Of a DNA stretch of 64,000 nucleotides, positions 48,982 through 64,000 are shown piece by piece. This DNA comes from Eubacteriales bacterium (GTDB lineage: Bacteria > Bacillota > Clostridia > Lachnospirales > Lachnospiraceae): NCBI GenBank assembly GCA_030526005.1, contig JAUNDP010000009.1, positions 22,545 to 86,544 of the forward strand, read 5' to 3'. Position numbers and translations under genes: made by a program. Numbering within the stretch: the stretch's first letter is position 1; each line of letters opens with the position of its first letter. Under the pieces are notes generated by a model. It had not been told where the DNA came from, did no database searches, and worked only from the letters and a program-made list of their open reading frames with translations.

Positions 48982-49232
48982 ATAAAAATCTCCTTAAAAG
49001 ATAATATTTTTTGTGACAAACGAGCAAATAATTATTTAAGAGTGGCAAGCAGATAAATAACTATTTAAAAATATTGTATATCAATATGTGTTGAAAATCA
49101 ATATCTGCTGAAATTTAAAACATAATATGCTAAAATATATATAAGATAAGGAAAACTTGACAGGGATAAGATTGGAAAAGGTATATATGTTTATGAATGG
49201 AAAAATAAAAATCAGAGAGGAGGATGTATCTT
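48982..49232. repeat. A/T-rich intergenic region with paired direct repeats
   Basis: AAATAA(T/C)TATTTAA occurs at about 49026-49039 and 49055-49068. ATCAATAT(G/C)TG(T/C)TGAAA occurs as two abutting 17-bp copies at 49080-49096 and 49097-49113. These lie between divergent genes and could be regulator binding sites. No gene is visible. Confidence 0.5.
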
Positions 49233-49553
49233 ATGGAGAAACATGGTTTTAAGAAAATTGCTATGAGAATTTTTTCAGTTTTACTTGCTGGATTTTCCAT
49301 TGTATTTGGGGCTACATGGAAACATCATGATGTCTGTCTGGGCGATAGGATTTTTAACAGTCTGGGAATACCCGCTTGGTCAAATGGAACAGAAGGCACA
49401 CATTATGCAGGGATTGTGGCAGTCATACTTTTTATAATCGCTTGTTTTTTATTCGCTGCGACAACGAAAGAAAAAGGGAAAACATTTCGGATTCTTATGA
49501 TAGGAGTTATCTGCATTGTCATTGTTTCCAGTTTTCTGTCCGTTTTGATATAA
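49233..49553 (+). CDS. Small three-helix membrane protein
   Basis: This 106-aa protein has hydrophobic helices at about residues 12-28, 58-76 and 84-104 and a polar loop (DVCLGDRIFNSLGIPAWSNG) between the first two. The start at 49233 has AGGAGG nine bases upstream. Function unknown. It is monocistronic, with a terminator-like hairpin at 49645-49697. Confidence 0.65.
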   Translation: MEKHGFKKIAMRIFSVLLAGFSIVFGATWKHHDVCLGDRIFNSLGIPAWSNGTEGTHYAGIVAVILFIIACFLFAATTKEKGKTFRILMIGVICIVIVSSFLSVLI

Positions 49554-49644
49554 AAAATAGGATTTTTGGCAGAAAAAAGATTGATGAATGGAAAATAAAT
49601 GGATACCGTATCATATTCAGCGAAGATTTTGTATCTCTTATATA

Positions 49645-49697
49645 CAAAAAATCCGGAAGGACTTTTGAAACAAAAGGATTCCTTTCGGATTTTTTTA
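49645..49697. terminator. Bidirectional terminator between convergent genes
   Basis: AAAAAATCCGGAAGGA pairs (one G-T) with TCCTTTCGGATTTTTTT. It serves the small membrane protein gene and the leftward HTH gene. Confidence 0.75.
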
Positions 49698-49745
49698 TGT
49701 ATAGAGTGATGATATCGTTCAATCATCTGATTTAACGATTTTGCG

Positions 49746-50021
49746 TCACTCGATTGTAAATGGTTTTTCAGAATATGAATGATTCCTTTGAGGCAGGGAA
49801 CCCTCCTCAGTTGCGGCTTGAATGCCACGAACCATTGCATTCTGCATGGCTCCTTTTAATTGTGCCACTTCAGCTTCATGACGTTTGTCTTTTAGAGCAT
49901 TGTGGATTGTAGATTGTGATACATCGTACAAAGCAGCAAGTTTTGTTTGAGAAAATCCATCTTCTTCTGAAAGTTGATAAATTCTATTTTTTTGGTATTC
50001 TGTAAGTGATCTTTTTGCCAT
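49746..50021 (-). CDS. Small helix-turn-helix protein
   Basis: This 91-aa protein has an N-terminal HTH of the resolvase/Hin-like or homeodomain-like kind (LTEYQKNRIYQLSEEDGFSQ, then TKLAALYDVSQSTIHNALKD) and a short polar tail. A strong AAAAGGAGGG precedes the start. It stands divergently from the helicase gene, and the space between holds repeats of ACTTAATAA(C/T)TAT at about 50044 and 50098. It could therefore repress itself or the defence genes; that is inference. Confidence 0.7.
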   Translation of the reverse strand: MAKRSLTEYQKNRIYQLSEEDGFSQTKLAALYDVSQSTIHNALKDKRHEAEVAQLKGAMQNAMVRGIQAATEEGSLPQRNHSYSEKPFTIE

Positions 50022-50042
50022 GCAGCAAGCCCTCCTTTTATT

Positions 50043-50107
50043 AACTTAATAATTTATGATGAAATTATACCAATAAAATCAATGAAATTCAATATTTACT
50101 TAATAAC
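50043..50107. promoter_or_regulatory. Repeated A/T-rich motif upstream of the HTH gene
   Basis: AACTTAATAATTTAT (about 50043-50057) and TACTTAATAACTATA (about 50097-50111) share ACTTAATAA-YTAT at a 54-bp distance. Candidate operators of the adjacent HTH protein. Confidence 0.35.
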
Positions 50108-50265
50108 TATATTATTTAATAAAGAAAACAGATGATTTAGGTGGAAAGAATGTTTATCTGATGGTTAGAAAAAATATATGTTTTATAGTTTTGAAGCAGA
50201 ATCTTCAAAAAGCGGGGATATAAAATCTGGATAATATGATAAAATGAGAAGTACAGGAGGTGGGA

Positions 50266-53262
50266 ATGATAGAACAAGAAAAATTATTAGAATTGCATAG
50301 AGGATTTGAAACAGCATTTATAAATGGAACGACTGCTTCAAATTTAACATATAAGCCTCAGTTTATTTCAAATAATTATAAACAAGGAAAGAAAGTATTA
50401 TCATCTATAGAAGATGAGTTATCCATATGCGAACAATTCCAGATTAGTGTTGCCTTCATTACGATGGGGGGAATTACTCCGTTGCTACAGACATTAAAAG
50501 AACTGGAAAAGAAAGGAATTAAAGGCGAAATTCTTACGACTAATTATTTGAATTTCAGCGAGCCCAGAGCTTTAGAAAAATTGAACCGTCTTTCAAATAT
50601 CACGCTGCGAATGTATGATGTGGAAGCTGCTGGGGAAGGTTTCCATACAAAAGGATATATCTTTAAAAAAGATGAAATTTATAGAATTATTATTGGAAGT
50701 TCTAATATGACCAGAACAGCGCTTACAACGAATCGAGAATGGAATACGCGTCTGGTATCAACGGAAAAAGGCGAAGTGGCTCAGAATATTTTAAATGAGT
50801 TTAAGGAACTATGGAATAGTAAATATGCTTCTGACTATGATGATTTTTATGAAATATATAAAGAGCGTTACAAGATTATCAAGAGACAGCGCCAAATTGC
50901 TCGAAGCGAAGAGGTGCCTTCCATTCAAAAATACCGTTTGCAGCCAAATTCTATGCAGACAAGTTTTATTGTAAATCTGAGAAAAATAATTGAGGCTGGT
51001 GAAAAAAGAGCATTGCTGATTTCAGCTACAGGTACAGGAAAAACATATGCTTCGGCATTCGCTATGCGTGAATTGGGATATAAAAGAGTATTATTTTTGG
51101 TACACCGTGGTCAGTTAGCACGCCAGACAAAAAGATCCTATCAGAAAGTATTTGGGAAAAATATTTCGATGGGATTAGTAGGGGCTGGATATTCCGACTA
51201 TAATGCTGATTATGTATTTGCAATGGTGCAGACAATAAGCCGCCCGGAACATTTACATAAATATAAACCAGATGATTTTGAATGTATTATTCTTGATGAA
51301 GCACACCATAGCTCCGCAGATACCTATCAGAAGATTTTGGATTATTTTGAACCTAAATTGTGGCTTGGAATGACAGCGACACCTGATAAGAGAGATGATA
51401 ATATTGCCGGGCGAAATATCTATGAAATTTTTCATTATCAGATTGCTTATGAAATTCGGCTGCAACAGGCGATGGAAGAGAATTTATTGTGTCCTTTTCA
51501 CTATTTTGGAATTAGTGATCTCTCTATTTTGGATGATAAGCAATTAAAATCAAGAAAAATGACAGATAGAGATTTTAATCTGCTTACAGGGGATGAACGT
51601 GTCCGCCATATTATAGAACAGGCGGAATATTATGGATATAGTGGCGATAGAGTAAAGGGATTGGTTTTTTGCAGCAGAATAGATGAGACAGAAGAGCTTT
51701 CTCAAAAATTTAACCAAGCTGGTTTCAGAACGATTGCATTAAATGGAAGCGCATCGGAAGAAGAGAGAGCAAGTGCATTTGAAAGACTTGCAATGGATGA
51801 AAAAGATGCAAATGAACAGATACAGCCACTAGATTATATTTTTTCTGTAGAAATTTTAAATGAGGGTGTTGATATCGTAGAAGTAAATCAAGTTATTATG
51901 CTTCGTCCTACAGAATCGCCGATTGTTTTTATTCAGCAGCTTGGAAGAGGACTGCGCAAAGCAGAAGGCAAAGAATATGTTGTTATTCTGGATTTTATTG
52001 GAAATTATAATAATAATTTTATGATTCCAGTAGCGCTTTCAGGAGACCGCACTTATAATGCTGATACGATTAGAAAATATGTGATCAGCGGAAACTCAAC
52101 AATTCCAGGCGCTTCGACAGTACATTTTGATGAGATTGCAAAAGATAAAATTTTTTCTTCTATTGATAAAATGAAAGGAATAAAAATAATCATAAAGTCA
52201 AGCTATAAAAAATTAAAAAATAGATTAGGGCGTGTTCCGTATTTGATAGACTTTTATGATGCGGGCGAAGTAGATCCATTAGCCATTATTCGTGAATATA
52301 AAACATATCAGGCATTTCTGGAGTCAGAAGAAAAAGAATTGTACATCGGAAAAATTTCTGAGGAAGAGATAACGATCTTAGAATATCTGTCAAAGACAGT
52401 TTTAAATGGTATTCGTCCATATGAGCTGGAAATATTAAAATGCTTTATGAAACAGGAAGTTATTCAGGTAGAGCAGATGAGAGATGAATTAAAAGAAAAG
52501 TATGGATATATTGTTGATACGACTTCGTTTTCCAATGCAGTGGATGTACTAAGAGGACATTTTGTAAGTAAAAAAGATGAATATCAAAAATATTGCCATA
52601 TTGATATCATAAATAATGATAACAAACAGACGCTTCAGAGAATGATGAGATATGCAGAATTTTTAAAGCATACCGAATTTTATCGGCAGATCAACGATAT
52701 TATCGAGGTTGGGCTGAGGCGGTATCAAGAAAAATATCATGAAGGAAGAACAGAGGAATGTCCATTTGTTTTATATGAAAAATATTCCAGACGTGATGTG
52801 AGCCTGCTGATGAATTGTGGAAAAGATTTATCCTCGATCATGTATGGGATGAAACGGATCGAAGACGATGTATTTCTTTTTGTTACCTATCATAAGCAGG
52901 AAAGCAAGGATGAAGCTGAATTGTATGTGGCTGGCAAGCCAGATTATGCAGATGCTTTTGAAGATCATATGATTTTTAATTGGGATTCGCAGATTGGAAA
53001 AGGCGCAGACAGTTCTTATATGAAAGAAGTCTGCACAGCAAAGAGAAAACATTTATTTGTTAAAAAAAGTGACGCGGAAAGCAATTTTTATTATATGGGT
53101 CAGTTCCATATTCTGGAAGTAAAAGCTGATAAAAAGAAAGATAAAAGTGGAAAAGACAGGGATATTGCCAAAGTAAAAATGCAGATGAAACAACCTGTCA
53201 GGGATGATTTGCTGCGGTATTTGCAGAGTAATATTGAGACAGAAGGTGAAAAAGCGGTATGA
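50266..53262 (+). CDS. PLD-nuclease / SF2 helicase / DUF3427 defence-type protein
   Basis: This 998-aa protein has three parts. An N-terminal phospholipase-D-like nuclease domain carries HTKGYIFKKD (His127, Lys129) and GSSNMTRTAL. An SF2 helicase shows Walker A SATGTGKT (Lys259), DEAH at 344-347, GMTATPDKRDD and motif VI QQLGRGLRK. The C-terminal third (about 640-990) matches DUF3427. This architecture is recurrent in anti-phage islands; single PLD motifs usually act as dimers. The start at 50266 has CAGGAGG five bases upstream. Its stop overlaps the Nudix start (ATGA). The helicase could translocate on invader DNA while the PLD domain cuts; that is inference. Confidence 0.92.
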   Translation: MIEQEKLLELHRGFETAFINGTTASNLTYKPQFISNNYKQGKKVLSSIEDELSICEQFQISVAFITMGGITPLLQTLKELEKKGIKGEILTTNYLNFSEPRALEKLNRLSNITLRMYDVEAAGEGFHTKGYIFKKDEIYRIIIGSSNMTRTALTTNREWNTRLVSTEKGEVAQNILNEFKELWNSKYASDYDDFYEIYKERYKIIKRQRQIARSEEVPSIQKYRLQPNSMQTSFIVNLRKIIEAGEKRALLISATGTGKTYASAFAMRELGYKRVLFLVHRGQLARQTKRSYQKVFGKNISMGLVGAGYSDYNADYVFAMVQTISRPEHLHKYKPDDFECIILDEAHHSSADTYQKILDYFEPKLWLGMTATPDKRDDNIAGRNIYEIFHYQIAYEIRLQQAMEENLLCPFHYFGISDLSILDDKQLKSRKMTDRDFNLLTGDERVRHIIEQAEYYGYSGDRVKGLVFCSRIDETEELSQKFNQAGFRTIALNGSASEEERASAFERLAMDEKDANEQIQPLDYIFSVEILNEGVDIVEVNQVIMLRPTESPIVFIQQLGRGLRKAEGKEYVVILDFIGNYNNNFMIPVALSGDRTYNADTIRKYVISGNSTIPGASTVHFDEIAKDKIFSSIDKMKGIKIIIKSSYKKLKNRLGRVPYLIDFYDAGEVDPLAIIREYKTYQAFLESEEKELYIGKISEEEITILEYLSKTVLNGIRPYELEILKCFMKQEVIQVEQMRDELKEKYGYIVDTTSFSNAVDVLRGHFVSKKDEYQKYCHIDIINNDNKQTLQRMMRYAEFLKHTEFYRQINDIIEVGLRRYQEKYHEGRTEECPFVLYEKYSRRDVSLLMNCGKDLSSIMYGMKRIEDDVFLFVTYHKQESKDEAELYVAGKPDYADAFEDHMIFNWDSQIGKGADSSYMKEVCTAKRKHLFVKKSDAESNFYYMGQFHILEVKADKKKDKSGKDRDIAKVKMQMKQPVRDDLLRYLQSNIETEGEKAV

Positions 53263-53660
53263 AAACAATAAGAGTGGCTGCCGCCATTATTAAGAAAGTA
53301 AATGAAAAAGGAGAAACCATTATTTTTGCAACACAACGTGGATATGGCGATCTAAAAGGCGGATGGGAATTCCCAGGAGGTAAAATTGAGGCAGGTGAAA
53401 CGTCTCAGGAAGCTTTGAAGCGTGAAATCAGGGAAGAACTGGAAACAGAAATCACGGTGGGAGATTTGATCGATACGATAGAATACGATTATCCAACTTT
53501 TCATCTATCAATGGATTGCTTTTGGGCAGAAGCTGTGTCAGGCAGTTTCAGATTAAAAGAACATCAAGCTGCCAAGTGGCTGACGAAAAAAGAATTGGAT
53601 TCGGTTGAGTGGCTTCCGGCAGATATCATATTGCTTGATGCAATTAAAAATGAAATGTGA
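53259..53660 (+). CDS. Nudix (deoxy)nucleoside triphosphate pyrophosphohydrolase
   Basis: This 133-aa MutT-like hydrolase has a Nudix box of GGKIEAGETSQEALKREIRE and then EL, with the catalytic Glu residues present. The closest known types cleave oxidised or modified dNTPs or CTP (MutT/NudG group). Its ATG overlaps the helicase stop by four bases, so the two proteins are translated together. This suggests a joint role such as nucleotide clearance during defence. A 112-base gap follows. Confidence 0.88.
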   Translation: MKTIRVAAAIIKKVNEKGETIIFATQRGYGDLKGGWEFPGGKIEAGETSQEALKREIREELETEITVGDLIDTIEYDYPTFHLSMDCFWAEAVSGSFRLKEHQAAKWLTKKELDSVEWLPADIILLDAIKNEM

Positions 53661-53772
53661 TATAGAAAAACACAGAGATATATTATAAAATAGTGAAAGA
53701 GAAATTTTAGAAAATAAATTTCATCTGTCACACAAGATTGAATAAATAGAGTAATAAGAGGAGAGATACCGT

Positions 53773-55515
53773 ATGGATGCACGCAAAGGAAACATTTATG
53801 AAATATTGAATGGAAATTATCAATATTTGATACCTGTTTATCAAAGATTTTATAGTTGGGAGACAGAACAATGTAAGCGCCTTTGGAATGATATTGTAGA
53901 GATGCAGAGAAAGAAAAAAGAGGGGCATTTTGTTGGTTCTATCGTCAATATTGCAGAACGGGCTATGCCGACAGGCGTTCAGAAATATATGATTATTGAC
54001 GGCCAGCAACGTATGACAACATTAACATTGCTGTTGGCGGCATTGCGTGACTATGTGATTGATCATCCAGATGACGTTTCTGTCAATGCACATCGTATTG
54101 ATGGAATGCTTTTAAAAAATGAATATGAAAGTGGCGATGAGAGATATAAGCTTCTGCTGACAGAAACAGATAGAGATATTCTCATTAGTATTGTAGAAAG
54201 AAAACCTGTTCCTCCAGATATAAGATCCAGATTATTGGATAACTATAAATATTTTTCAGGGAAGATTGCAGACAAAGAACTTTCGCCTATAGAAGTGTGG
54301 GAATCAATCGGAAAGCTGCAGATTGTGAATATTACTTTGGATCGTGCTTCAGATGATGCACAGGCAATTTTTGAGAGTTTAAATTCTACTGGAAAAGAAC
54401 TTTCAGAATCAGATTTAATTCGGAATTATGTCCTTATGGGATTAGAACAATCAGAACAAATGTATGTATATGAGCATCTGTGGAGACCAATGGAGCAGCT
54501 GTTTGCATATGAGACACAGAGTCCGGCTATGGATAGTTTTTTTCGCCATTATTTGACGATGAAAAGTTCTCGCATCCCAAAACAGGGACGTGTATATGAA
54601 GAATTTAAAGCATATCATTTGAATTGCGAATTTAGTTCAATCCGTGAACTGTGCCAGGATCTTTTCTGTTATGCTAAGTATTATACAGATATTGTATTTA
54701 GAAGAAGCGATGACGCAGAATTAAGACAATTATATGAAGATATAGTGGAATTAAGAATGGAAGTTTCGTATCCGTTTTTACTTAAAGTGCACCATGATTG
54801 GGAAGAGAAGATTATTACAGATAATAATTTAAAAGAAATTCTGCGTCTGTGTATCAGCTATGTGCTGAGACGGAACATTTGTGATATTCCGGCAAATTCT
54901 ATGAATAAAACATTTGCTGTTTTTAAGAATGCAATCAACTTGGATGATTATATGAACTCTATAAAAACATTTTTTATTATACAGGATACTTACAAGGAAT
55001 TTCCAGATAATGATAAATTTTCAGAAGCATTTGCCACAAGGAATATCTATAATATGCGTGCCAGAAATTATATACTCAGCCGATTGGAAAATTATGAAAA
55101 TAAAGCTCCGATTATCATTGAGAATTATACGATTGAACATATTATGCCGCAGAACAAGGAGCTTTCAATAGAATGGCAGAGAGATCTTGGAGATAATTGG
55201 AAGGAGATCCAGAAAAAATATCTTCATACCATTGGCAATCTGACTTTGACAGCATACAATTCGGAAATGGGTGATCGACCATTTATGGAAAAAGTGAATA
55301 TGCCGGGCGGATTCAAAGAAAGTGCACTCAGGTTGAATAAATATGTTGTATCACTCTCAAAGTGGAATGAGGATGCTATTCAGAAAAGAGCTCAGGAATT
55401 GATAGAGAAAGCGCAACAGATATGGCCTTATCCCGATCCTGATTTATCAAAAGGGGAACTTATTATGGGATATAAAATGAACAGAAATCAACGCAAACGC
55501 GTAATTTGGAGTTAG
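53773..55515 (+). CDS. GmrSD-type DUF262/DUF1524 nuclease
   Basis: This 580-aa protein has an N-terminal DUF262 (ParB/Srx-like) domain (YLIPVYQRFYSWETEQCKRL, and the nucleotide-site motif IIDGQQRMTT with Asp76-Arg80). A C-terminal DUF1524 His-Me nuclease carries YTIEHIMPQNKELS (His456) and HTIGNLTLTAYNSEMGDRPF. GmrS and GmrD are fused here as in many type IV restriction enzymes, which cut DNA with modified (for example glucosylated) cytosine using NTP. GAGGAGAG precedes the start. All key residues are intact. It overlaps a 65-aa ORF. Confidence 0.92.
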   Translation: MDARKGNIYEILNGNYQYLIPVYQRFYSWETEQCKRLWNDIVEMQRKKKEGHFVGSIVNIAERAMPTGVQKYMIIDGQQRMTTLTLLLAALRDYVIDHPDDVSVNAHRIDGMLLKNEYESGDERYKLLLTETDRDILISIVERKPVPPDIRSRLLDNYKYFSGKIADKELSPIEVWESIGKLQIVNITLDRASDDAQAIFESLNSTGKELSESDLIRNYVLMGLEQSEQMYVYEHLWRPMEQLFAYETQSPAMDSFFRHYLTMKSSRIPKQGRVYEEFKAYHLNCEFSSIRELCQDLFCYAKYYTDIVFRRSDDAELRQLYEDIVELRMEVSYPFLLKVHHDWEEKIITDNNLKEILRLCISYVLRRNICDIPANSMNKTFAVFKNAINLDDYMNSIKTFFIIQDTYKEFPDNDKFSEAFATRNIYNMRARNYILSRLENYENKAPIIIENYTIEHIMPQNKELSIEWQRDLGDNWKEIQKKYLHTIGNLTLTAYNSEMGDRPFMEKVNMPGGFKESALRLNKYVVSLSKWNEDAIQKRAQELIEKAQQIWPYPDPDLSKGELIMGYKMNRNQRKRVIWS

Positions 55516-55703
55516 ATGATATAAATATAGCCATGAAGATGTTTTTTGATGCTCTGGACAGGCATATTATGAATCTTTCACCGTCTGTAAAACGCGAGTT
55601 TAAAAAATTATATATAGCATATAAGCTAGATAGCAACTTGAAGAATCGTATCGAATACAGGCAAAATAAAAGAAAACAATTATTTAGATCATCAGAGGAA
55701 TAA
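55506..55703 (+). CDS. Small basic protein between the GmrSD and WYL genes
   Basis: This 65-aa lysine/arginine-rich, all-helical-looking protein (SPSVKREFKKLYIAYK, and NRIEYRQNKRKQLF) begins at a TTG that overlaps the last codons of the nuclease gene, implying translational coupling. An internal ATG at 55533 is the alternative start. I know no family. It ends four bases before the first WYL gene. It could be a subunit or inhibitor of the nuclease, but nothing in the sequence proves it. Confidence 0.5.
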   Translation: MELDDINIAMKMFFDALDRHIMNLSPSVKREFKKLYIAYKLDSNLKNRIEYRQNKRKQLFRSSEE

Positions 55704-55706
55704 ACG

Positions 55707-56951
55707 ATGGCATACCATGAATTAGTGAAAAATTTTAATAGAATTCGTGATTATATGCGTGAATTTTATATTTATGGATTTAAGAGCCGGGAGGAATATA
55801 CGAGAAAGAGTGCGCGTTCTTATGACGATGAACGCCGCCGATTGGAAAACTGGATGGAGAATTATATTTATTTTCGGCAGAAGTCAGATAGAAAAAATGT
55901 TTTTCTGTCTATTGACAGCCGTGCAGCTCATCAAAATCCCTTTTACAAAGCTTTCAAAACAAAAAGTTTTACGGATACAGATATTACTCTTCATTTTATT
56001 CTGTTAGATCTATTAGATGAAGCAGGAAAAGAATTATCTATCGGCGAAATTACAAAAAAGCTGGATGAATATTTATCGGTGTTTTCAGAACCAAGAGTGT
56101 TTGATGAGTCAACGGTACGCAAAAAACTGAAAGAATATGTAAAAGAAGGAATGCTGGTTACAGAAAAACAGGGAAAATCTTTATATTATAAGAGAACAAA
56201 AGCAGCGCCAGAATATAACACAGATCTTCTGCATTTCTTTTCAGAAATTGCTCCCTGCGGCATAATCGGTTCCTATCTGCTTGATAAAAAAGAGGACTAT
56301 GAAGAACATTTTACATTTAAACATCATTACATAACGAGCGCTATGGACAGTGAAATCATCTGTCAATTATTTATCGCCATGCGTGAGAAGAGAAGCGTTA
56401 CATTGGAGGCATGGAACCGCCATAAAAATCATATGACAAAAACTTCTGTGATCCCGATTCGAATGATGATCAGCGTGCAGAACGGAAGACAATATCTAAT
56501 GGCATATACCCCGCAATTTAAACGGATTACCTCTTTCCGAACAGATCATATTGTTTCAGTGAAGTTTGGTGAAAAGATAGACAGATTCGATGAGCTTCGA
56601 GAAAAATTAAACAGTATGAAATTTCATATGTGGGGCGTCAGCACACAGAGCAGATCTCGTCATAGAATGGACCACGTTGAATTTACGGTTCATTATGATG
56701 ACAGCGAACAGCATATTCATCGACGCCTGGAACGTGAGAAACGGTGTGGCACAGTAGAGAGGATTGACAAAAATACAAGCAGATTTTCAGCCGATGTATA
56801 CGATGCAAGTGAGATGGTGCCATGGATCAGAACGTTTATCTGTCGTATCACAGACGTTCATTTTTCAGATAAAAAACTGGAGGAACAGTTTAAAAATGAC
56901 ATCGAGAAAATGTACCGGCTATATGGAATAGAAAGCAGTGAAATACAATGA
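55707..56951 (+). CDS. WYL-domain transcriptional regulator 1
   Basis: This 414-aa protein has an N-terminal helical region, a winged HTH at about residues 90-165 (ELSIGEITKKLDEYLSVFSE, and VRKKLKEYVKEGMLVTEK) and a WYL domain at about 210-320 (NGRQYLMAYTPQFKRITSFR, where QYL takes the place of WYL). A WCX-like C-terminal extension completes it. WYL domains bind nucleic acids or nucleotides and control defence and DNA-damage genes. The stop overlaps the next WYL gene by four bases, so the two are a pair. Confidence 0.88.
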   Translation: MAYHELVKNFNRIRDYMREFYIYGFKSREEYTRKSARSYDDERRRLENWMENYIYFRQKSDRKNVFLSIDSRAAHQNPFYKAFKTKSFTDTDITLHFILLDLLDEAGKELSIGEITKKLDEYLSVFSEPRVFDESTVRKKLKEYVKEGMLVTEKQGKSLYYKRTKAAPEYNTDLLHFFSEIAPCGIIGSYLLDKKEDYEEHFTFKHHYITSAMDSEIICQLFIAMREKRSVTLEAWNRHKNHMTKTSVIPIRMMISVQNGRQYLMAYTPQFKRITSFRTDHIVSVKFGEKIDRFDELREKLNSMKFHMWGVSTQSRSRHRMDHVEFTVHYDDSEQHIHRRLEREKRCGTVERIDKNTSRFSADVYDASEMVPWIRTFICRITDVHFSDKKLEEQFKNDIEKMYRLYGIESSEIQ

Positions 56952-57862
56952 TTTTCAGTGAAATATATGGCGTATATTATAAGACGGTCGCTGAGATTCT
57001 AAAAGAAGCAATTGATCATCCTCAGCAGAAAAATGAACTGAGAGAAATAATAAGAAAAAATGCGTTTAAGGAAAGCATTTTGAATATAGAGCCGGCGCTG
57101 TATGAAGAAAGGTGGCAGCTATTAAAGAGAGATGGAACGACACCGATCAGAAAGGCTCCGACAATGCCTCTTACAACGATTCAGAAGCGATGGCTGAAAG
57201 CAATTTCCTTAGATCCTCGGATTCGATTATTTCAAGATGAGTGGACTGATTTTCCAGAAGTGGAACCGCTTTTCACAAAGGATGATTATGATGTGTTCGA
57301 TCAATATGCCGATGGAGATCCTTATGAGAATGAGGAGTACAGATCTCATTTTAAAACCATCTTGAACGCGATAAAGAATCAGGATCTTCTTGCCATAGAA
57401 ATGAAGAACAGGAGAGGAAAGAAGATAGAAATACAATTAATGCCCAAATATCTAGAATATTCTGAAAAGGATGATAAATTTCGCTTAATAGGTTTTAGCA
57501 AAAGGTGTACGAGGACCGTGAACCTGGGGCGCATCCTTTCTTGTAAAAGAGATGGGAGCGTTTATGAGAATTTGCCTATGCAGAAATTCACCGCCAGATC
57601 ACGAAAGGTTATCTTTGAATTGGCAGATGAGAGAAAGGCGTTGGAGAGAGTCCTTCTTCATTTTGCTAATTTTGAGAAGCAGACGGAACGGATAAATGAA
57701 AACCATTATCGTGTTACTGTAAATTATGACAGAGACGATGAAACAGAAATGGTGATACGAATTTTATCATTCGGACCGATGATAAAAGTAACAGAGCCAG
57801 ATCACTTTGTAAACTTAATAAAAGAGAGATTGATACGTCAAAAAGTTGTGGACAATGAATAG
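56948..57862 (+). CDS. WYL-domain protein 2
   Basis: This 304-aa partner of the preceding regulator has an N-terminal region (1-95) and a WYL domain (about 140-220). In that domain KFRLIGFSKRCTRTVNLGRI takes the WYL position, and a WCX-like tail follows. A clear HTH is less obvious than in the first protein. Translational coupling by ATGA suggests a heterodimer comparable to the PafB-PafC pair. A terminator overlaps its stop codon. Confidence 0.82.
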   Translation: MIFSEIYGVYYKTVAEILKEAIDHPQQKNELREIIRKNAFKESILNIEPALYEERWQLLKRDGTTPIRKAPTMPLTTIQKRWLKAISLDPRIRLFQDEWTDFPEVEPLFTKDDYDVFDQYADGDPYENEEYRSHFKTILNAIKNQDLLAIEMKNRRGKKIEIQLMPKYLEYSEKDDKFRLIGFSKRCTRTVNLGRILSCKRDGSVYENLPMQKFTARSRKVIFELADERKALERVLLHFANFEKQTERINENHYRVTVNYDRDDETEMVIRILSFGPMIKVTEPDHFVNLIKERLIRQKVVDNE

Positions 57863-57877
57863 TTCGCAACTTTTTTT
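57839..57877 (+). terminator. Terminator overlapping the end of WYL gene 2
   Basis: AAAAAGTTG pairs with CAACTTTTT (9 bp) and T7 follows; the stop codon at 57860 lies in the loop. It separates the restriction/WYL operon from rtcB, although read-through is possible. Confidence 0.6.
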
Positions 57878-57972
57878 CCATGATAAAAACAAATGCCATG
57901 TGTAAAATAAAAATAGAAACAGCGAAGATGAGACAGTGTTTATAAAAAAATCGGAGAAGAAGGAGAGAAGCG

Positions 57973-59193
57973 ATGTTAGAGATAAAAGGAAAAATGAATA
58001 CAGCGATCTGTTATGCAAAAGTCATAGAAGACGAAGCGGTAGAACAGATACGCAGAATGTGTGATTATGCGTTGAGTGAAGGGACAAAAATCAGAATTAT
58101 GCCGGATGTTCATGCCGGAAAAGGATGTACCATTGGAACGACGATGACCATTGTTGATAAGGTGTGTCCCAACATTGTCGGGGTAGATCTTGGATGCGGG
58201 ATGTATACGGTAAAACTTGCAGATACCGTGCTTGATTTTGAGAAGATTGATGAGGCATGCCATTTTATTCCATCCGGGATGAATGTCTGGGAAGGGCGAA
58301 TGGAACGATTTGATTTGACAGATCTTCGCTGTTACAGATCTTTAAAAGATGCAAAGCGTTTGGAACGTTCGCTTGGAACTTTGGGCGGAGGAAATCATTT
58401 TATAGAAATTGACAGATCTACTGATGGATTTTATTACTTGATTATCCATTCTGGAAGCAGAAATCTGGGAAAGCAAGTGGCAGAGTATTATCAGCAGCTG
58501 GCGATAGACCTTCAGATGGGAAAGGAAGAGTATTTTTACCAAAGAGATGAGATTATCCGCACTTATAAGGAGATGGGAAGGCGCTCTGAGATTCAGGAAG
58601 AATTAAAGAAATTAGAACAGACTTTCAAGGCGAAAAGTTTATTGGTGCCAGAGGATATCTGCTGGCTGTATGGAACCTTTTTGGAGGATTATCTGCATGA
58701 TGTGGAGATCTGTCAAAAATTTGCAAAGAGAAGCAGGGAGCGTATGGCAGAGATTATCATTGAAAAAACGGGAATGAAAGCAGTGGAAGCTTTTCATACG
58801 ATCCATAATTATATCGATACAGAAGAAATGATTCTTAGAAAAGGCGCGATTGCTGCGCATAAAAGCGAAAAGGTTCTGATACCGATTAATATGAGAGATG
58901 GGTCTGTTATTGCCATCGGCAAGGGAAATCCTGAATGGAATTACTCGGCGCCTCATGGAGCTGGCAGAATCATGTCGAGAACAAAAGCAAAGGAATTATT
59001 GGATATGACAGCATATAAGGATGCTATGAAAGGAATTTATACAACCTCTGTCAATGAAGCAACATTGGATGAAGCGCCTATGGCATACAAATCATTGGAG
59101 GATATCATAGATGTGATCGGTGACTCTGTAGAAGTGCGGGATATTATGAAGCCTGTCTATAATTTTAAGGCATCAAGCAATAATATACTTTAG
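57973..59193 (+). CDS. rtcB: RtcB-family RNA ligase
   Basis: This 406-aa Mn2+/GTP-dependent ligase joins 2',3'-cyclic-phosphate or 3'-phosphate RNA ends to 5'-OH ends, such as those left by ribotoxins. Active-site motifs are complete: PDVHAGKGCTIG, VGVDLGCGM, LGGGNHFIEI, HSGSRNLGKQ and SAPHGAGRIMSR, with His328 the likely guanylated residue. GAAGGAGAG precedes the start. No RtcA, archease or RtcR is nearby; instead a RlaP-type nucleotidyltransferase follows 16 bases later. Confidence 0.95.
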   Translation: MLEIKGKMNTAICYAKVIEDEAVEQIRRMCDYALSEGTKIRIMPDVHAGKGCTIGTTMTIVDKVCPNIVGVDLGCGMYTVKLADTVLDFEKIDEACHFIPSGMNVWEGRMERFDLTDLRCYRSLKDAKRLERSLGTLGGGNHFIEIDRSTDGFYYLIIHSGSRNLGKQVAEYYQQLAIDLQMGKEEYFYQRDEIIRTYKEMGRRSEIQEELKKLEQTFKAKSLLVPEDICWLYGTFLEDYLHDVEICQKFAKRSRERMAEIIIEKTGMKAVEAFHTIHNYIDTEEMILRKGAIAAHKSEKVLIPINMRDGSVIAIGKGNPEWNYSAPHGAGRIMSRTKAKELLDMTAYKDAMKGIYTTSVNEATLDEAPMAYKSLEDIIDVIGDSVEVRDIMKPVYNFKASSNNIL

Positions 59194-59209
59194 AAAAAGG
59201 AGCTAAAAA

Positions 59210-59968
59210 ATGGAAAAGCTGATTGTGAATAAATTACAGGAAATGGAAGAAAAAGAGAATATTCGGATTTTATTGGCAGTTGAGTCGGGAAGCAGAGCAT
59301 GGGGATTTGCCTCGCCGGATAGTGATTATGATGTTCGTTTCATATACATTCGCAAGAAAGAAGATTATTTGCGATTGGATGAAATAAGAGATGTAGTGGA
59401 AGGGCAGTTGGATGATGTGTTTGATATCAATGGCTGGGATGTGAAAAAAGCGTTACGTCTGTTATACAAATCAAATCCAACTGTGTTTGAATGGTGCGCA
59501 TCCCCGATTATTTATCGAACTTCACCTGAATTTGAAAAATTGAAAATGTTATTGCCTTTTTATTTTTCAAAGAAAAAATTATTGTATCATTATTGGCATA
59601 TGGCGGAGACAAATTATCGCGGATATTTAAAAATAGATGAAGTAAACATAAAAAAATATTTTTATGTTTTAAGACCGTTGCTTGCCGCAAAATGGATTTT
59701 AGATAAAGATTGTCCGCCACCTATGTTGTTTTCTGAATTAGTGGAAGCAGAACTAGAGGATGAATTGAAACCGCAAGCAGAGCAATTACTGAAGATGAAA
59801 CAAGAGCTTCCGGAAAAGGGATTTGCTCCGAAAAATCAAGCTTTGACGAATTATATTGAGTATATGATGGAGAAAATGAAAAATAAAGCGGATGAAATCA
59901 TAACACAAGATAATTGTGGATGGGAATATTTGAATCATTATTTTATGTCATTGTTAGATTTGCAGTGA
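59210..59968 (+). CDS. RlaP-type nucleotidyltransferase (RNA-repair associated)
   Basis: This 252-aa protein of the DNA-polymerase-beta-like superfamily has an NTase core GSRAWGFASPDSDYDVRF (Gly27-Ser28 and metal-binding Asp39/Asp41), then a helical C-terminal domain (YWHMAETNYRGYLK). RlaP proteins are known as RtcB/RNA-ligase neighbours and may add nucleotides to damaged RNA ends. AAAAAGGAGC precedes the start, and the 16-base spacing to rtcB implies one operon. Confidence 0.88.
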   Translation: MEKLIVNKLQEMEEKENIRILLAVESGSRAWGFASPDSDYDVRFIYIRKKEDYLRLDEIRDVVEGQLDDVFDINGWDVKKALRLLYKSNPTVFEWCASPIIYRTSPEFEKLKMLLPFYFSKKKLLYHYWHMAETNYRGYLKIDEVNIKKYFYVLRPLLAAKWILDKDCPPPMLFSELVEAELEDELKPQAEQLLKMKQELPEKGFAPKNQALTNYIEYMMEKMKNKADEIITQDNCGWEYLNHYFMSLLDLQ

Positions 59969-60013
59969 GAAGCAGTCATTCAGTAAAATATGAATTTTAA
60001 AATGCTGCATTTA

Positions 60014-60042
60014 TTGAAAACAGAAAAATATACAGGTATAAT
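60014..60042 (+). promoter_or_regulatory. Near-consensus sigma-A promoter for the HNH gene
   Basis: TTGAAA, a 17-base spacer and TATAAT, 92 bases before the start codon at 60135. It indicates that the HNH gene is transcribed separately from rtcB. Confidence 0.75.
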
Positions 60043-60134
60043 ACTGGATATAATCAACAAAGTTAGAAAATTTGAGACTTGCTGCAGAAGAAAATTAGAA
60101 TATGGAGAAGGTCAGGCTAAGAAGAGGTGAAAAA

Positions 60135-61310
60135 ATGGAGCCATTTCATGCACATCAAGGTGGATATACGTTGAGCATTAAGGAAAAATACATAAATACA
60201 TTAGATATTGAAAGTTTTTCTCAAATGCTGAAAGATCCTTCTTATTGCTATAAGTTTTATTGGTTGGAAGCGATTGTAAATCTAATTTCAAAGGGAATTC
60301 AGAACACAACATTTGATGAAATTATTGATGAAATGATCTGTAATGCTTGGTATTCAGTAAGAGAATTTCATATTCATCTTAGTGGACTGCAGGCAGATGG
60401 ACTGGTAAGAGATGGATTGGAACGAGCAATATTACAATTAACAAAATTAAGTGATTTGCCTGCCAACGCATCAAAAATTGAGATAAAAAATGCAATAGCA
60501 GATCATAATGAGGAATTGAAAATTTACAAAGAACAGTTGACCAATATGGTTCCAGGACGTGCATTAGCAGGATTTTTTACGAAAAGTAATGAGGTCGTAC
60601 CATGGGGGAGTGTGCGAAGACTGACAGAATATATTCGCAGGATTCATACCACATTTGTTCAGCTTCCATATACTTTTGGAGATAGTAGTAGACTGAAAAA
60701 AGAAGTTTATTTTAATGAAGATTGGATGCGGATGATACAGGATCATACAGTAAATATATTGGGATGGATTCAATATGAAAAAGTGAAATGGCTGCAAAAT
60801 AACAATCCGGAGATGCCAAGCTTAATTTATAAATTGTCACCAATGGATGAGAAAATGCGAAAGCTGAATCATGTACGAAAACTTTGGGAAGGAATTTTGA
60901 CAGTTTGTGAAGTTAGAGATGTATTTACTGGACAGCCGATTGAACCGAAGAAATATGATGTAGATCATTTTATTCCTTGGTCTTTTGTCATGAATGATGA
61001 ATTGTGGAATTTAATGCCAATGGATTCTTCATTAAATTCTTCTAAAAGCAATAAACTTCCTAAATGGAATCCATTTTTTATCATTTTTGCAGAAAATCAA
61101 TATCATATGTACCGGTTGATTCATGAAAGAAAAGAATTATATAAACATTTTGAGGCATGCTATCGGGACAATTTACATTCCATTTGGGCTGGACAGGAAC
61201 TGTACCGTTCAGGAAATTTAAAAGAAGAGTTTGTAAATATTTTAGAGAAAAACATGAGACCAGTTTATGATTCTGCTAGACGGCAGGGATATGAAATTTG
61301 GAATTATTAA
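60135..61310 (+). CDS. HNH endonuclease domain protein
   Basis: This 391-aa protein has a long helical N-terminal region (1-240) of unknown family and a C-terminal HNH site, YDVDHFIPWSFVMNDELWNL followed by NSSKSNKLPKW. The His, Asn and final Asn/Lys residues needed for metal binding are present. There is no CxxC zinc pair. It is probably a DNA nuclease of the island with its own promoter. AAGAGGTG precedes the start at 60135. An earlier in-frame ATG at 60102 lacks a site. Confidence 0.82.
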   Translation: MEPFHAHQGGYTLSIKEKYINTLDIESFSQMLKDPSYCYKFYWLEAIVNLISKGIQNTTFDEIIDEMICNAWYSVREFHIHLSGLQADGLVRDGLERAILQLTKLSDLPANASKIEIKNAIADHNEELKIYKEQLTNMVPGRALAGFFTKSNEVVPWGSVRRLTEYIRRIHTTFVQLPYTFGDSSRLKKEVYFNEDWMRMIQDHTVNILGWIQYEKVKWLQNNNPEMPSLIYKLSPMDEKMRKLNHVRKLWEGILTVCEVRDVFTGQPIEPKKYDVDHFIPWSFVMNDELWNLMPMDSSLNSSKSNKLPKWNPFFIIFAENQYHMYRLIHERKELYKHFEACYRDNLHSIWAGQELYRSGNLKEEFVNILEKNMRPVYDSARRQGYEIWNY

Positions 61311-61400
61311 GAAAAAATTCTGATAGAAAATAATAGAAAGATTATAATAAAGAAAATAAAGCCTGAGCTAGAGTTTTATTTTTTGAGGAAGGTAAACGAT

Positions 61401-61742
61401 ATGAATATTCAAATATTTGGAACAAAAAAATCTTTTGATACTAAAAAAGCAGAACGTTATTTTAAAGAGCGGGGAATAAAGTATCAGTTTGTGGATATGA
61501 AAGAAAAAGGATTGAGTAAGGGAGAATTTAATTCAGTGTGTCAGGCAGTAGGCGGAATGGAAAAGTTGATGGATCAAGATTGCAAAGATAAGGAGTTGAT
61601 GGCATTGATCCAATATATTGCAGATGAGGATAAAGAGGATAAGATTCTTGAAAATCAGAAAGTGATCAAGACGCCGATTGTGCGAAATGGTAAACAGGCA
61701 ACTGTTGGATATCAACCGGATATATGGAAAAATTGGAAATAA
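61401..61742 (+). CDS. ArsC/Spx-fold protein lacking the active Cys
   Basis: This 113-aa thioredoxin-fold protein of the arsenate-reductase-like family begins MNIQIFGTKKSFDTKKAERY. The CX2C or CX3 redox motif of ArsC and Spx is replaced by KKSFDT. The C-terminal KTPIVRNGKQATVGYQPDIW matches the family cis-Pro and tail regions. GAGGAAGG precedes the start. Without the Cys it cannot reduce arsenate; a binding or Spx-like role is possible. It is one of the more conserved-looking genes in the island. Confidence 0.8.
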   Translation: MNIQIFGTKKSFDTKKAERYFKERGIKYQFVDMKEKGLSKGEFNSVCQAVGGMEKLMDQDCKDKELMALIQYIADEDKEDKILENQKVIKTPIVRNGKQATVGYQPDIWKNWK

Positions 61743-61911
61743 TGATAGAATAGGAAACAATTATGAAAAAGAGAAGAAGGAACCGCTTTAAATTTTTTAA
61801 TCCAGAATAAAAATTTGGCGGGTACTGTACGGTATATTTTGAAGAACGGGTTCCATAAAGAGGGACGGTGTCTTTAGAAAAAATATTGGAGATAAAGAAG
61901 GAGGTAAGACT
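61743..61911. other. Short intergenic stretch before the ATA-start gene
   Basis: Between the ArsC/Spx-like gene and the next frame there is a 15-codon ORF starting at 61763 (MKKRRRNRFKFFNPE) and otherwise no recognisable gene. A strong ribosome binding site, AGAAGGAGG, lies at 61896-61904. Confidence 0.4.
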
Positions 61912-62601
61912 ATAAAAATAATAAAAGATATTCGCATTTATAAGAGCAATATAGAAAACATTGATGGCAACTCCTATCCACATAGTTTTACCGAAAAATC
62001 TCTTCATATTATTATTCATAGAATTGTGATGAAATTGCGAGAATATAAATTTTCTTTTGGAGAGTTTGATCACTTGTATCTGAATTTTACTACTTGTTTG
62101 CCTTTTGGGCAAATTGAGCCTGCCAGACGAAGTATCAATATATACCATCCATGGTATAGGTATTATGATATAGGCATTCAAGCCAATATGTATGAAAATC
62201 TTGATAAAAATATTGAGATGGTCATACATGGATTAAGTAAAACGCTTAGCTGCTATTTTGCGAAACAGAATGGTGTTGAGAATATAAACACTTTTATCGA
62301 ATCTGCATTGCAGGAAGGTGAAAAAATGAAGATTTTTTATAAGGAGAAGAAATCTGCAAAAAATATTGCCAGAATCTATCTAAGATATTTAGATAACGGT
62401 AAGTATTTACCTTTGCTATGTGTTTATGATTTGGAGAAGAATGAAATTTTTCATGCAGATCTTCCGCAAATGATAGATCTATTTGCACTGGGAGAAATTC
62501 AACTGAATAGTAAAAAAGTTACCATACAACCTCGTAAGAATATTTTTACAGAGGGAATGAAACCTATTACATATGAATTGCAAAAGATAGATCATGTTTA
62601 A
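61912..62601 (+). CDS. Orphan protein, probable non-canonical ATA start
   Basis: The frame encodes about 229 aa of unrecognised soluble protein (for example KLREYKFSFGEFDHLYLNFT, RRSINIYHPWYRYYDIGIQA and YLRYLDNGKYLPLLCVYDLE). The first usual starts are GTG at 62026 and ATG at 62029, which have no ribosome binding site. The frame stays open upstream, and AGAAGGAGG lies seven bases before an ATA at 61912 that opens KIIKDIRIYKSNIENIDGNS. So the gene probably starts at ATA, or its ATG has mutated. No known family; the aromatic-rich sequence recalls small immunity-type proteins, which is only an impression. Confidence 0.55.
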   Translation: MKIIKDIRIYKSNIENIDGNSYPHSFTEKSLHIIIHRIVMKLREYKFSFGEFDHLYLNFTTCLPFGQIEPARRSINIYHPWYRYYDIGIQANMYENLDKNIEMVIHGLSKTLSCYFAKQNGVENINTFIESALQEGEKMKIFYKEKKSAKNIARIYLRYLDNGKYLPLLCVYDLEKNEIFHADLPQMIDLFALGEIQLNSKKVTIQPRKNIFTEGMKPITYELQKIDHV

Positions 62602-62852
62602 AAATTTATCGGCAGAAATTTTGCTGTAAGCAATGGGAATAAAAATGTGCCGATTGTTCCTTTATCCTCGAAGGCATATCATATAGAGTAACGCTATAGA
62701 CAGAAGCAGAGAGATTATATGCTTATATTTATAAAGTAATATGTGAGATGGAAGAAATGAATGCAATGGATGCCTTAGTATATTTTAGAATTAAAATTAA
62801 TGATGAAGTGAGAAAAGAACTTTTAAGATATAATATCGAACTTGTTGTATGA
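62602..62852 (+). pseudogene. Decayed coding sequence in two frames
   Basis: In frame with the preceding gene, after its stop, comes FIGRNFAVSNGNKNVPIVPL and then SSKAYHIE with a stop near 62690. In another frame from 62700 comes TEAERLYAYIYKVICEMEEM, and the stretch ends in LLRYNIELVV with a stop at 62852. Both look like real protein, so one gene seems to have been broken by an indel or deletion. I do not recognise the parent. After it, up to 62982, only a 30-codon ORF (62874-62966) is seen. Confidence 0.4.
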
Positions 62853-62982
62853 TAATAAGTTTAATTTTTAGAAATGAAAAAATTTGAATTGATTAATCTG
62901 AAAGCGAGAATTGTTCCTTATCCACAGGAGAAGGAGTCAGCATACAGAAAGAATTTGAAAATCTAAAAAAGGGAGATTAAAA

Positions 62983-63813
62983 ATGAAATCAGTTTTACTT
63001 ATAGGACAATCAAATATGGCAGGACGCGGATTTTTGAACGAGGTTACGCCGATTTATAATGAAAATATTTTTATGCTCAGAAACGGCAGATGGCAAATGA
63101 TGACAGAACCTATCCACTTTGACAGGTCAGTTGCCGGTGTCGGACTGGCGGCTTCTTTTGCACAGGCATGGTGCAATGAAAATAAAAATGAACAAATTGG
63201 ACTTATACCTTGTGCGGAAGGAGGAAGTTCTATTGATGAGTGGAATAAAGAAGGTGCTTTATTTCGTCACGCCGTCAGTGAAGCAAAATTCGCTATGGAA
63301 AACAGTGAATTGATTGCAATTTTGTGGCATCAAGGAGAAAGTGATGGTTATCGTGAAAAATACAAAAATTATTATCAAAAACTGAATGATTTAGTTCATT
63401 CATTTAGAAAAGAACTTGGAGCTTTGGAAATTCCGTTCATTGTTGGCGGTTTGGGAGATTATTTAGGTAAGTCTGGATTTGGAAAAAGTTGTGTAGAGTC
63501 TGATTTAATTAACCAAGAATTACTTAAATACACAGAAAATAATAAGAACTGTTATTTTGTAACAGGAGAAAAATTATACCCTAATCCAGACGGTATCCAT
63601 ATCAATGCAGAGTCTCAAAGAAGATTTGGCATTAGATATTTTGAAGCTTATCAGACTAAATCAAATATCATTGAGCCATTAGACAATGAAGCGAATATGG
63701 TAAAAGCATTGTGTGAAAGAGAACACTCTATTGCAGAAAAAAGATACATAACGCTGGAACAATTTACATTAGGAAAAAGCTCTATGGAAGAAGTAATGAA
63801 ATTTTTAAAATAG
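62983..63813 (+). CDS. SASA/SGNH-type esterase (sialate O-acetylesterase-like)
   Basis: This 276-aa carbohydrate-esterase-6-like protein starts MKSVLLIGQSNMAGRGFLNE with nucleophile Ser10 in GQSNMAG. WHQGESDG and the catalytic Asp-His in PDGIHINAESQRRFG follow. There is no signal peptide, so it is cytoplasmic. It is likely to remove acetyl groups from sialic acid or other sugars. Its place at the edge of a defence island is odd and may reflect insertion. AAGGGAGA precedes the start. The C-terminal 50 residues extend beyond the esterase fold. Confidence 0.88.
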   Translation: MKSVLLIGQSNMAGRGFLNEVTPIYNENIFMLRNGRWQMMTEPIHFDRSVAGVGLAASFAQAWCNENKNEQIGLIPCAEGGSSIDEWNKEGALFRHAVSEAKFAMENSELIAILWHQGESDGYREKYKNYYQKLNDLVHSFRKELGALEIPFIVGGLGDYLGKSGFGKSCVESDLINQELLKYTENNKNCYFVTGEKLYPNPDGIHINAESQRRFGIRYFEAYQTKSNIIEPLDNEANMVKALCEREHSIAEKRYITLEQFTLGKSSMEEVMKFLK

Positions 63814-63820
63814 GAATATA

Positions 63821-63976
63821 AATGCCAGTTTTTTCGACAGAAATAAAAGAATTGCTGCGACGATATTTCTTTATTTTCTTGATAAAAATGAAGCTTTATT
63901 TGTGGATGGAGAAAAGAAAATAAAAGATGTTGCTTTGGCTGCATTTGGTTCTATGTCAAGATTTAGTACAAGTTAA
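63821..63976 (+). pseudogene. C-terminal remnant of a Fic/RhuM-type protein
   Basis: A 51-codon frame with no usable start reads NASFFDRNKRIAATIFLYFL and then DKNEALFVDGEKKIKD, and it ends at 63976. It matches the HPFxDGNKR helix of Fic domains as found in RhuM-type proteins, but the His is lost and DGNKR has become DRNKR. The rest of the gene is absent here. A small hairpin (ATGAGG/CCTCAT) follows the stop. Confidence 0.5.
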
Positions 63977-64000
63977 AATGAGGGTTTCCTCATCTTAACC

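What the first reader, a model, noticed from the sequence alone, without database searches (positions are those of the whole stretch)
50266..59968. Candidate composite defence locus: helicase/Nudix, GmrSD, paired WYL regulators and an RNA-repair pair
Seen: eight genes in a row on one strand with overlaps (53259, 55506, 56948) or short gaps. They are PLD-helicase-DUF3427, Nudix, DUF262/DUF1524, a basic 65-aa ORF, WYL, WYL, RtcB and RlaP. Known: the first three families are DNA-directed defence types, and RtcB with RlaP repairs RNA cut by ribotoxins. Inference: one island may couple DNA restriction with RNA repair, with the WYL pair as the damage or invader sensor. I know of no described system with this exact set.
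Basis: partly seen in the sequence, partly recalled or inferred. Interest (0 to 1): 0.72.

Follow-up and report, generated by a model that had tools for sequence, protein, structure and literature searches.

The report
Switchable RNA-repair operon of gut bacteria
The eight genes are not one combined defence machine: four of them are an RNA-repair set, two paired switch proteins with an RNA ligase and an end-repair enzyme, that shares an unusually strict DNA control signal with other gut bacteria, while the DNA-cutting genes beside it look like unrelated neighbours.

Summary
The conserved unit is WYL1-WYL2 (55707-57862) with RtcB-RlaP (57973-59968). In 80 named loci chosen by WYL1 alone, WYL2 follows in 79. 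Of 50 with at least 5 kb downstream, 38 hold a repair enzyme there (RtcB 36) and 9 more only DUF2828 or SPFH. GmrSD occurs in 0 of 80, the helicase in 1. After WYL2 the window holds TTCGCAACTTTTTTTCCATGA (57863-57883), 19 nt before a -10 box. This element occurs in 11 of 30 family genomes with a WYL1 match, 0 of 170 without. In three genomes it lies away from the WYL pair, before RtcB or DUF2828; twice it precedes Hen1-Pnkp, another RNA-repair system. I infer a PafBC-like activator of a repair regulon that senses damaged RNA; activation and ligand are untested. In sister loci the promoter also precedes arrays of Y-RNA-like, partly tRNA-like RNAs before DUF2828, and another structured leader before SPFH; neither was found in the window. 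Helicase-Nudix is a separate, common unit.

The parts
55707..56951 (+). WYL1, 414-aa WYL regulator
   Evidence: Pfam WYL, PADLOC WYL; a profile of 20 sequences finds PafC and PafBC as best, weak PDB hits (E 0.045 and 0.27); HTH-like region around residues 34-50 read by eye
56948..57862 (+). WYL2, 304-aa partner WYL protein
   Evidence: PADLOC WYL E 1e-11; follows WYL1 in 79 of 80 loci, the other being cut by its contig end
57840..57875 (+). Hairpin followed by a T run at the end of WYL2; probable terminator, overlaps the element
   Evidence: -15.9 kcal/mol, z -5.3; left arm absent at the four trans sites
57863..57883 (+). Conserved element TTCGCAACTTTTTTTCCATGA, candidate WYL1-WYL2 operator
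   Evidence: single perfect site in the assembly
57903..57908 (+). -10 box TAAAAT, 19 nt after the element
   Evidence: 19-nt spacing in 65 of 71 sites
57973..59193 (+). RtcB, 3'-phosphate or cyclic-phosphate / 5'-OH RNA ligase
   Evidence: Pfam RtcB E 2e-53; four active-site motifs aligned to solved RtcB structures
59210..59968 (+). RlaP, RNA-ligase-associated Pol-beta nucleotidyltransferase
   Evidence: Pfam RlaP E 1.9e-85; GS...DYD motif by eye
50260..53262 (+). Neighbour, not part of the unit: PLD-helicase-DUF3427, type IV restriction enzyme-like
53259..53660 (+). Neighbour: Nudix (MutT-like; PADLOC PDC-S07), partner of the helicase
53773..55515 (+). Neighbour: GmrSD-type DUF262-DUF1524 protein, shorter than its seven best relatives
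55506..55703 (+). 65-aa ORF, perhaps a fragment of a DUF5655-type domain rather than a gene of the unit
   Evidence: no relative of it in the WYL loci

Best explanation
WYL1-WYL2 and RtcB-RlaP form an inducible RNA-repair unit that lies by chance, or by ordinary island clustering, next to unrelated restriction genes. Shown: the gene linkage, a strict promoter-like element with fixed spacing, its restriction (in 591 genome searches) to genomes with a WYL1 match, its presence in trans before RtcB or DUF2828, and its place before another repair system (Hen1-Pnkp). Inferred: the WYL pair acts as a PafBC-like heterodimer that binds TTCGCA[AG]CTTTTTTTCC[AG]TGA and brings RNA polymerase to promoters without a -35 box; [quoted passage not shown] RtcB then rejoins the RNA and RlaP restores lost nucleotides beforehand. 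In sister loci the same promoter precedes Y-RNA-like RNAs with DUF2828, or a different structured RNA with an SPFH protein, ahead of RtcB. The confidence given is for the unit and its regulon; I put activation (rather than repression) at about 0.75 and an RNA ligand at about 0.5.
For: Linkage: RtcB in 17 of 31 family stretches; 38 of 50 loci with RtcB, RlaP or Hen1-Pnkp within 5 kb and 9 more with only DUF2828 or SPFH. Element: perfect site in the window, 0.01 expected at up to 3 mismatches. Family: 12 sites in 11 of 200 genomes; 11 of 30 with a WYL1 match, 0 of 170 without. Class: 15 sites in 14 of 391; 14 of 43 with a match, 0 of 348 without. Reversed-pattern control 0 in both. In 80 loci (1.21 Mb) 70 sites, all on the operon strand, 66 with WYL2 as nearest recognised gene upstream. 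Spacing exactly 19 nt in 65 of 71 and no TTGACA-like -35. Trans sites before RtcB (G002) and DUF2828 (G047, G092). Hen1-Pnkp after the element in L133 (one mismatch) and L124. PafBC precedent (PMC11804915, passages).
Against: No expression or binding data. Five loci (L080, L085, L096, L103, L106) have sequence after WYL2 but no site by this pattern; L103 has a near copy one T shorter. Fourteen of 31 family stretches hold no RtcB; of these three have DUF2828, two SPFH and one RlaP, and eight none of them. WYL pairs of about 40% identity and below sit by RtcB of another kind without this element. A Treponema plasmid pair (44%) has neither the element nor a recognised repair gene in the 6 kb after it. 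In part of the cis loci the element overlaps a terminator-like hairpin. One trans site (L189) precedes no recognised repair gene. Known ligands of related WYL activators are ssDNA.
Confidence: 0.8

Rival explanations
1. Composite defence system: helicase, Nudix, GmrSD, WYL pair and RtcB-RlaP act together, restriction of DNA being coupled to RNA repair.
For: All on one strand with short gaps. A second genome, G002, has helicase and Nudix just upstream of the WYL pair, and an RtcB with the element about 11.6 kb from that pair on the same strand.
Against: GmrSD 0 of 80 and helicase 1 of 80 WYL loci; 0 of 20 helicase loci with WYL, RtcB or RlaP; own promoter and terminator-like hairpin before RtcB; GmrSD shorter than its seven best relatives.
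Confidence: 0.06
2. The WYL pair represses the repair genes and the ligand relieves repression.
For: At least one WYL protein is a negative regulator (sll7009, PMC4012209, passages).
Against: The element lies upstream of the -10 at a rigid spacing and takes the place of the -35 region instead of covering the -10 or start site.
Confidence: 0.2
3. The conserved element is only the intrinsic terminator of WYL2.
For: Hairpin of -15.9 kcal/mol and a run of seven T in the window; an upstream arm exactly complementary to the 8-base core in 15 of 58 cis sites (the window's arm has a mismatch and is not among the 15).
Against: The four trans sites have no such arm and are not behind WYL2, yet keep the element; the fixed 19 nt to a -10 box is not explained; no site on the other strand in 80 loci.
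Confidence: 0.05

Closest known systems
RtcR-controlled rsr-yrlBA-rtcBA RNA-repair operon of Salmonella (PMC7790460; abstract and passages seen)
   Same: RtcB under a dedicated, nearby ligand-sensing regulator; in sister loci a candidate RNA-binding protein with tRNA-like noncoding RNAs and RtcB in one row
   Different: Regulator is a WYL pair at a promoter with a -10 box, not a CARF-sigma54 activator; RlaP instead of RtcA in the window; DUF2828 instead of TROVE Ro60 in sister loci
PafBC, mycobacterial WYL heterodimer (PMC11804915; abstract and passages seen)
   Same: Two WYL proteins; PafB/C are the best, though weak, PDB sequence hits of WYL1; target promoters do not rely on a normal -35 contact
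   Different: PafBC uses a -26 motif; here the element lies further upstream. Targets are RNA-repair genes, not DNA-damage genes; ligand unknown
RNA-repair neighbourhoods with RtcB and RlaP, Burroughs and Aravind 2016 (not held; known here through citing passages in PMC7824862 and PMC6514570)
   Same: RlaP working with RNA ligases in counter-ribotoxin repair
   Different: I could not check whether that paper lists WYL pairs or DUF2828 with RtcB in Clostridia; the element and the RNA arrays come from my calls
SauUSI-like type IV restriction enzyme and GmrSD (SauUSI recalled; Pfam GmrSD; PADLOC mREase_IV and Orf5/HEC-06)
   Same: Domain make-up of the neighbours at 50260-55515
   Different: Not linked to the repair unit in the loci examined

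Membership tests
Regulated RtcB RNA-repair operon | RtcB with conserved catalytic motifs | tested here: met
   Alignment to solved RtcB shows the D-C, GNHF, HSGSR and PHGAGR motifs; residue roles recalled; the further metal-binding His (HNYIDTE) only by eye
Regulated RtcB RNA-repair operon | Dedicated regulator linked to rtcB | tested here: met
   RtcB within 5 kb of WYL2 in 36 of 50 loci; 17 of 31 family stretches
Regulated RtcB RNA-repair operon | RtcR (CARF-sigma54) regulation | tested here: not met
   Adjacent regulators are WYL proteins; the promoter has a -10 box. RtcR was not searched for elsewhere in the genome
Regulated RtcB RNA-repair operon | Induction by damaged RNA | not testable with these tools
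   Needs experiment
PafBC-type WYL activator pair | Two adjacent WYL proteins | tested here: met
   79 of 80 loci
PafBC-type WYL activator pair | Target promoters with a dedicated element and a -10 but no normal -35 | tested here: met
   that the pair binds there is not shown
PafBC-type WYL activator pair | Sequence homology to PafB/PafC beyond the WYL domain | tested here: inconclusive
PafBC-type WYL activator pair | Nucleic-acid ligand at the WYL domains | not testable with these tools
   Needs experiment
Ro60-Y RNA system (sister loci only) | TROVE-domain Ro60 | tested here: not met
   Pfam names DUF2828/DUF7788 in the two members scanned; hhalign to four Firmicute TROVE proteins aligns mainly the vWA part, probability 42, P 2.6e-4
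Ro60-Y RNA system (sister loci only) | Noncoding RNA with a stem from its two ends and a tRNA-like body | tested here: met
   71 of 82 closing stems exact against 4.5% for swapped arms; ARAGORN hits in 10 of 35 leader regions, two of them overlapping. Binding to DUF2828 not tested

The most novel reading that the evidence does not exclude
An RNA-damage regulon of Clostridia: one WYL pair reads broken RNA and, through a single near-invariant promoter element, switches on interchangeable RNA-repair modules (RtcB-RlaP, Hen1-Pnkp), a counterpart of the Ro60-Y RNA particle (DUF2828 with tandem tRNA-like RNAs), and an SPFH protein with a second new structured RNA. The window holds its minimal form.
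Probability: 0.45. Interest if true: 0.85.

Novelty: new variant of a known kind. Interest (0 to 1): 0.72.

Why it matters
RtcR is the one RNA-repair switch that I found worked out in the papers seen. A strict, searchable promoter element that ties a WYL pair to RNA-repair genes, including two unrelated repair systems, makes a second kind of switch and its signal directly testable. It also exposes two candidate RNA families: in the loci searched, Rfam gave their leaders nothing but tRNA hits at gathering level (8 loci) and short sub-threshold tmRNA matches. And it corrects a tempting reading of a defence island.

Tried and rejected
Composite-system reading: rejected. Single transcript for all eight genes: unlikely. 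The 65-aa ORF as a gene of the unit: not supported; no relative in the WYL loci, weak DUF5655 match; it had no hit among the longest plus-strand ORFs of ten GmrSD relatives, but three of those ten relatives lie on the other strand and were not covered, so its origin stays open. Element carried by phages: exact pattern 0 times in viral contigs; the closest phage RtcB (76% identity, MT839421) has no site at up to 3 mismatches. Noncoding RNA in the window: none by Rfam at E up to 0.5 over 49000-64000, no Y-like RNA by the motif scan of the window. TROVE in the own genome: none (6 of 299 phylum genomes have it).

The genome counts use every WYL1 match at E up to 0.001. The element was found by eye in these leaders before it was counted, and the 71 sites were chosen by the pattern (up to 3 mismatches), so conservation inside the 21 bases is partly built in; the -10 and the spacing are not. 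The RNA motif was also seen before it was counted; leader regions L131_11669 and L075_9510 were dropped as overlapping others (36 to 34). Shuffles are of two-base blocks; at a looser setting (85%) ARAGORN also hits the other strand in 5 of 35. Some tRNA-like bodies (L129) end in CCA and score like real tRNAs, so real tRNA genes among them are possible. The SPFH-leader covariation has no control. Of five plasmid records with WYL1 two were opened. Absence in print was checked only among open-licence papers; listings were seen for these, passages only of the papers named.
Full report
Observation. The A+T-rich stretch begins near 49 kb and continues to the window end, which is also the contig end. 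So the row is real; the question is what belongs together.

What travels together. I searched by WYL1 alone. In 200 genomes of the family (the own one included), 30 have a WYL1 match at E up to 0.001. I fetched 31 stretches from 29 genomes, one of them a second WYL pair of the own genome. RtcB relatives lie in 17 of 31, the helicase in 1, GmrSD in 0, RlaP in 1. Of the 14 without RtcB, three have DUF2828, two SPFH, one RlaP and eight none of these. In the six closer loci RtcB (50-80% identity) is downstream on the same strand; in the eleven more distant ones an RtcB of another kind (25-31%) is upstream and divergent from WYL1, so the association has been kept or remade through rearrangement. 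There WYL2 follows WYL1 in 79 of 80, the other being cut. Of 50 loci with at least 5 kb after WYL2, 36 have RtcB, 25 DUF2828, 12 SPFH (Band_7), 9 RlaP and 1 Hen1-Pnkp; 38 have at least one repair enzyme gene, 9 more only DUF2828 or SPFH, 3 none. Upstream of WYL1 (51 loci with at least 6 kb) there is one helicase, two Nudix, two RtcB and no GmrSD. RlaP follows RtcB in 10 of its 12 loci.

The neighbours. In 20 loci that I picked among the higher-scoring helicase matches, Nudix is present in 18 (15 within 400 bp on the same strand), the HNH_4 protein in 5, and WYL, RtcB, RlaP and GmrSD in none. Helicase and Nudix are thus a unit of their own; PADLOC calls them mREase_IV and PDC-S07. The seven best GmrSD relatives have open frames of 712-869 aa against 585 here; weaker ones are of varied length. 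The 65-aa ORF resembles only the first third of DUF5655, weakly. I read this as a shortened restriction gene abutting the repair unit, without proof. One genome, G002, also has helicase and Nudix beside a WYL pair.

The promoter element. Directly after the WYL2 stop codon the window reads TTCGCAACTTTTTTTCCATGA (57863-57883), then 19 nt, then TAAAAT (57903-57908). It is the only perfect match in the assembly (about 95% complete), next to one three-mismatch match; 0.01 are expected in the window at up to 3 mismatches. With up to one mismatch it occurs 12 times in 11 of 200 family genomes: 11 of the 30 with a WYL1 match, 0 of the 170 without. In the class it occurs 15 times in 14 of 391: 14 of 43 with a match, 0 of 348 without. 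The reversed-pattern control gave 0 both times. The genomes with a site are among those with the closest WYL1 (43% identity or more in the family set); more distant WYL pairs lack it, as expected if protein and site co-evolve. In the 80 loci (1.21 Mb) there are 70 sites at up to 3 mismatches, all on the operon strand, in 67 loci; WYL2 is the nearest recognised gene upstream in 66. Of the 13 loci without a site, eight end within or just after WYL1-WYL2; five do not (L080, L085, L096, L103, L106). Over 71 sites including the window, 13 of the 21 positions are invariant (the sites were chosen by the pattern), the spacing to the best -10 is 19 nt in 65, and the -35 position reads GTGATA or similar, not TTGACA.

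Sites in trans are the strongest test. In G002 the WYL pair has no RtcB beside it, but an 80%-identical RtcB, whose element lies about 11.6 kb from WYL1, starts 54-60 bp after that perfect element. In G047 and G092 elements lie on other contigs before DUF2828; a fourth trans site (L189) has no recognised gene after it. In L133 and L124 the element after WYL2 leads into Hen1 and Pnkp, an RNA-repair system unrelated to RtcB (recalled; a Pnkp1-Rnl-Hen1 complex is in the listing). A Subdoligranulum record filed as a plasmid has WYL pair, element, SPFH, RtcB and RlaP in a row. Against this, a Treponema plasmid pair has neither element nor a recognised repair gene nearby. One regulator and one element before different repair systems point to RNA damage as the common theme.

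Mechanism. PafBC, a WYL heterodimer, activates its promoters by sigma adaptation, standing between the DNA and the sigma domain that normally reads the -35, after binding ssDNA (PMC11804915, passages). RtcR turns on rtcBA after binding tRNA halves with cyclic phosphate (PMC7790460, passages). WYL factors have been predicted to sense such RNA ends, and some to regulate RNA repair (PMC9503650, passages). RlaP is predicted to restore nucleotides lost before ligation (PMC7824862, passages). The promoter design here fits an activator. I therefore propose a PafBC-like activator of RNA repair; that it activates, and by what ligand, is inferred. The hairpin at 57840-57875 (-15.9 kcal/mol, z -5.3) probably ends the WYL transcript and further separates RtcB-RlaP from the upstream genes. 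Its left arm is missing at the trans sites, so termination alone does not explain the element.

The wider system. The DUF2828 leaders have a median of 320 nt and range from 33 to 1759 nt, leaving out one of 2954 nt that spans the WYL genes. In 34 such leaders there are 92 NNACAGC[AG] motifs (30 leaders), 82 of them preceded by an AAG-type 7-nt arm; 71 of 82 have the exact complement of their own arm 25-140 nt downstream against 4.5% for arms of another type, and G follows in 71 of 71. One to six such RNAs stand in 29 of the 34 leaders; five leaders have none. Of 83 found in the 80 loci on both strands, 77 lie in these leaders, five in a leader cut by its contig end (L111) and one elsewhere in L083. 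SPFH leaders have none (0 of 16). ARAGORN at default finds tRNA-like bodies in 10 of 35 leader regions (two of them overlapping parts of L131), 0 on the other strand, 0 in five block shuffles; in SPFH leaders 1 of 16. At gathering level Rfam gives tRNA in the leaders of 3 of 8 loci searched and nothing else there. A stem made from the two ends, a conserved loop and a tRNA-like body is the plan of bacterial Y RNA (YrlA; recalled), so DUF2828 is a candidate Ro60 counterpart; profile comparison supports only a shared vWA part. The SPFH leaders (16 sequences) form a different structured RNA, 36 of 57 predicted pairs with changes on both sides (no control), with only short tmRNA-like matches below the gathering score in 3 of 4 such loci. 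Neither RNA was found in the window: it is the short form, element-RtcB-RlaP.

Novelty. RtcB-RlaP pairs and WYL regulators in conflict systems are known. I found no paper linking a WYL pair to a defined promoter of RNA-repair genes in the listings, but the key survey (Burroughs and Aravind 2016) is not held. I therefore rate it a new variant of a known kind.

Noticed in passing
L064:4182-4965, L088:4908-5766, L129:12216-13947 and other DUF2828 leaders: Tandem Y-RNA-like, partly tRNA-like noncoding RNAs with covarying end stems (71 of 82)
   Followed up: partly
L138:3097-3525, L113:10879-11376 and 14 other SPFH leaders (alignment A5): Second structured leader RNA of about 450 nt with a tRNA-type T arm; 36 of 57 predicted pairs have changes on both sides (no control)
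   Followed up: partly
L107:12534-14609 (+); L191:5046-7124 (-): A 690-aa protein family (56% identity) with no match in Pfam above its cut-offs or in PADLOC, after an element in L107 and after RtcB in G002
   Followed up: partly
G000:C51 (L060): Second WYL pair in the same genome, next to a DUF2828 gene and without this element
   Followed up: no
window 60102-61310: HNH_4 protein after RlaP; its relatives are near the helicase in 5 of 20 helicase loci
   Followed up: partly
L209 (G647): A TROVE (Ro60-type) gene next to RlaP in another family of the phylum
   Followed up: no
L215 (MT839421.1):648-1850: RtcB 76% identical to the window's in a small human-gut phage contig, without the element
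   Followed up: partly
L075:9510; L118:117: Element copies ahead of WYL1 in two loci (0 and 3 mismatches), possible autoregulation
   Followed up: no
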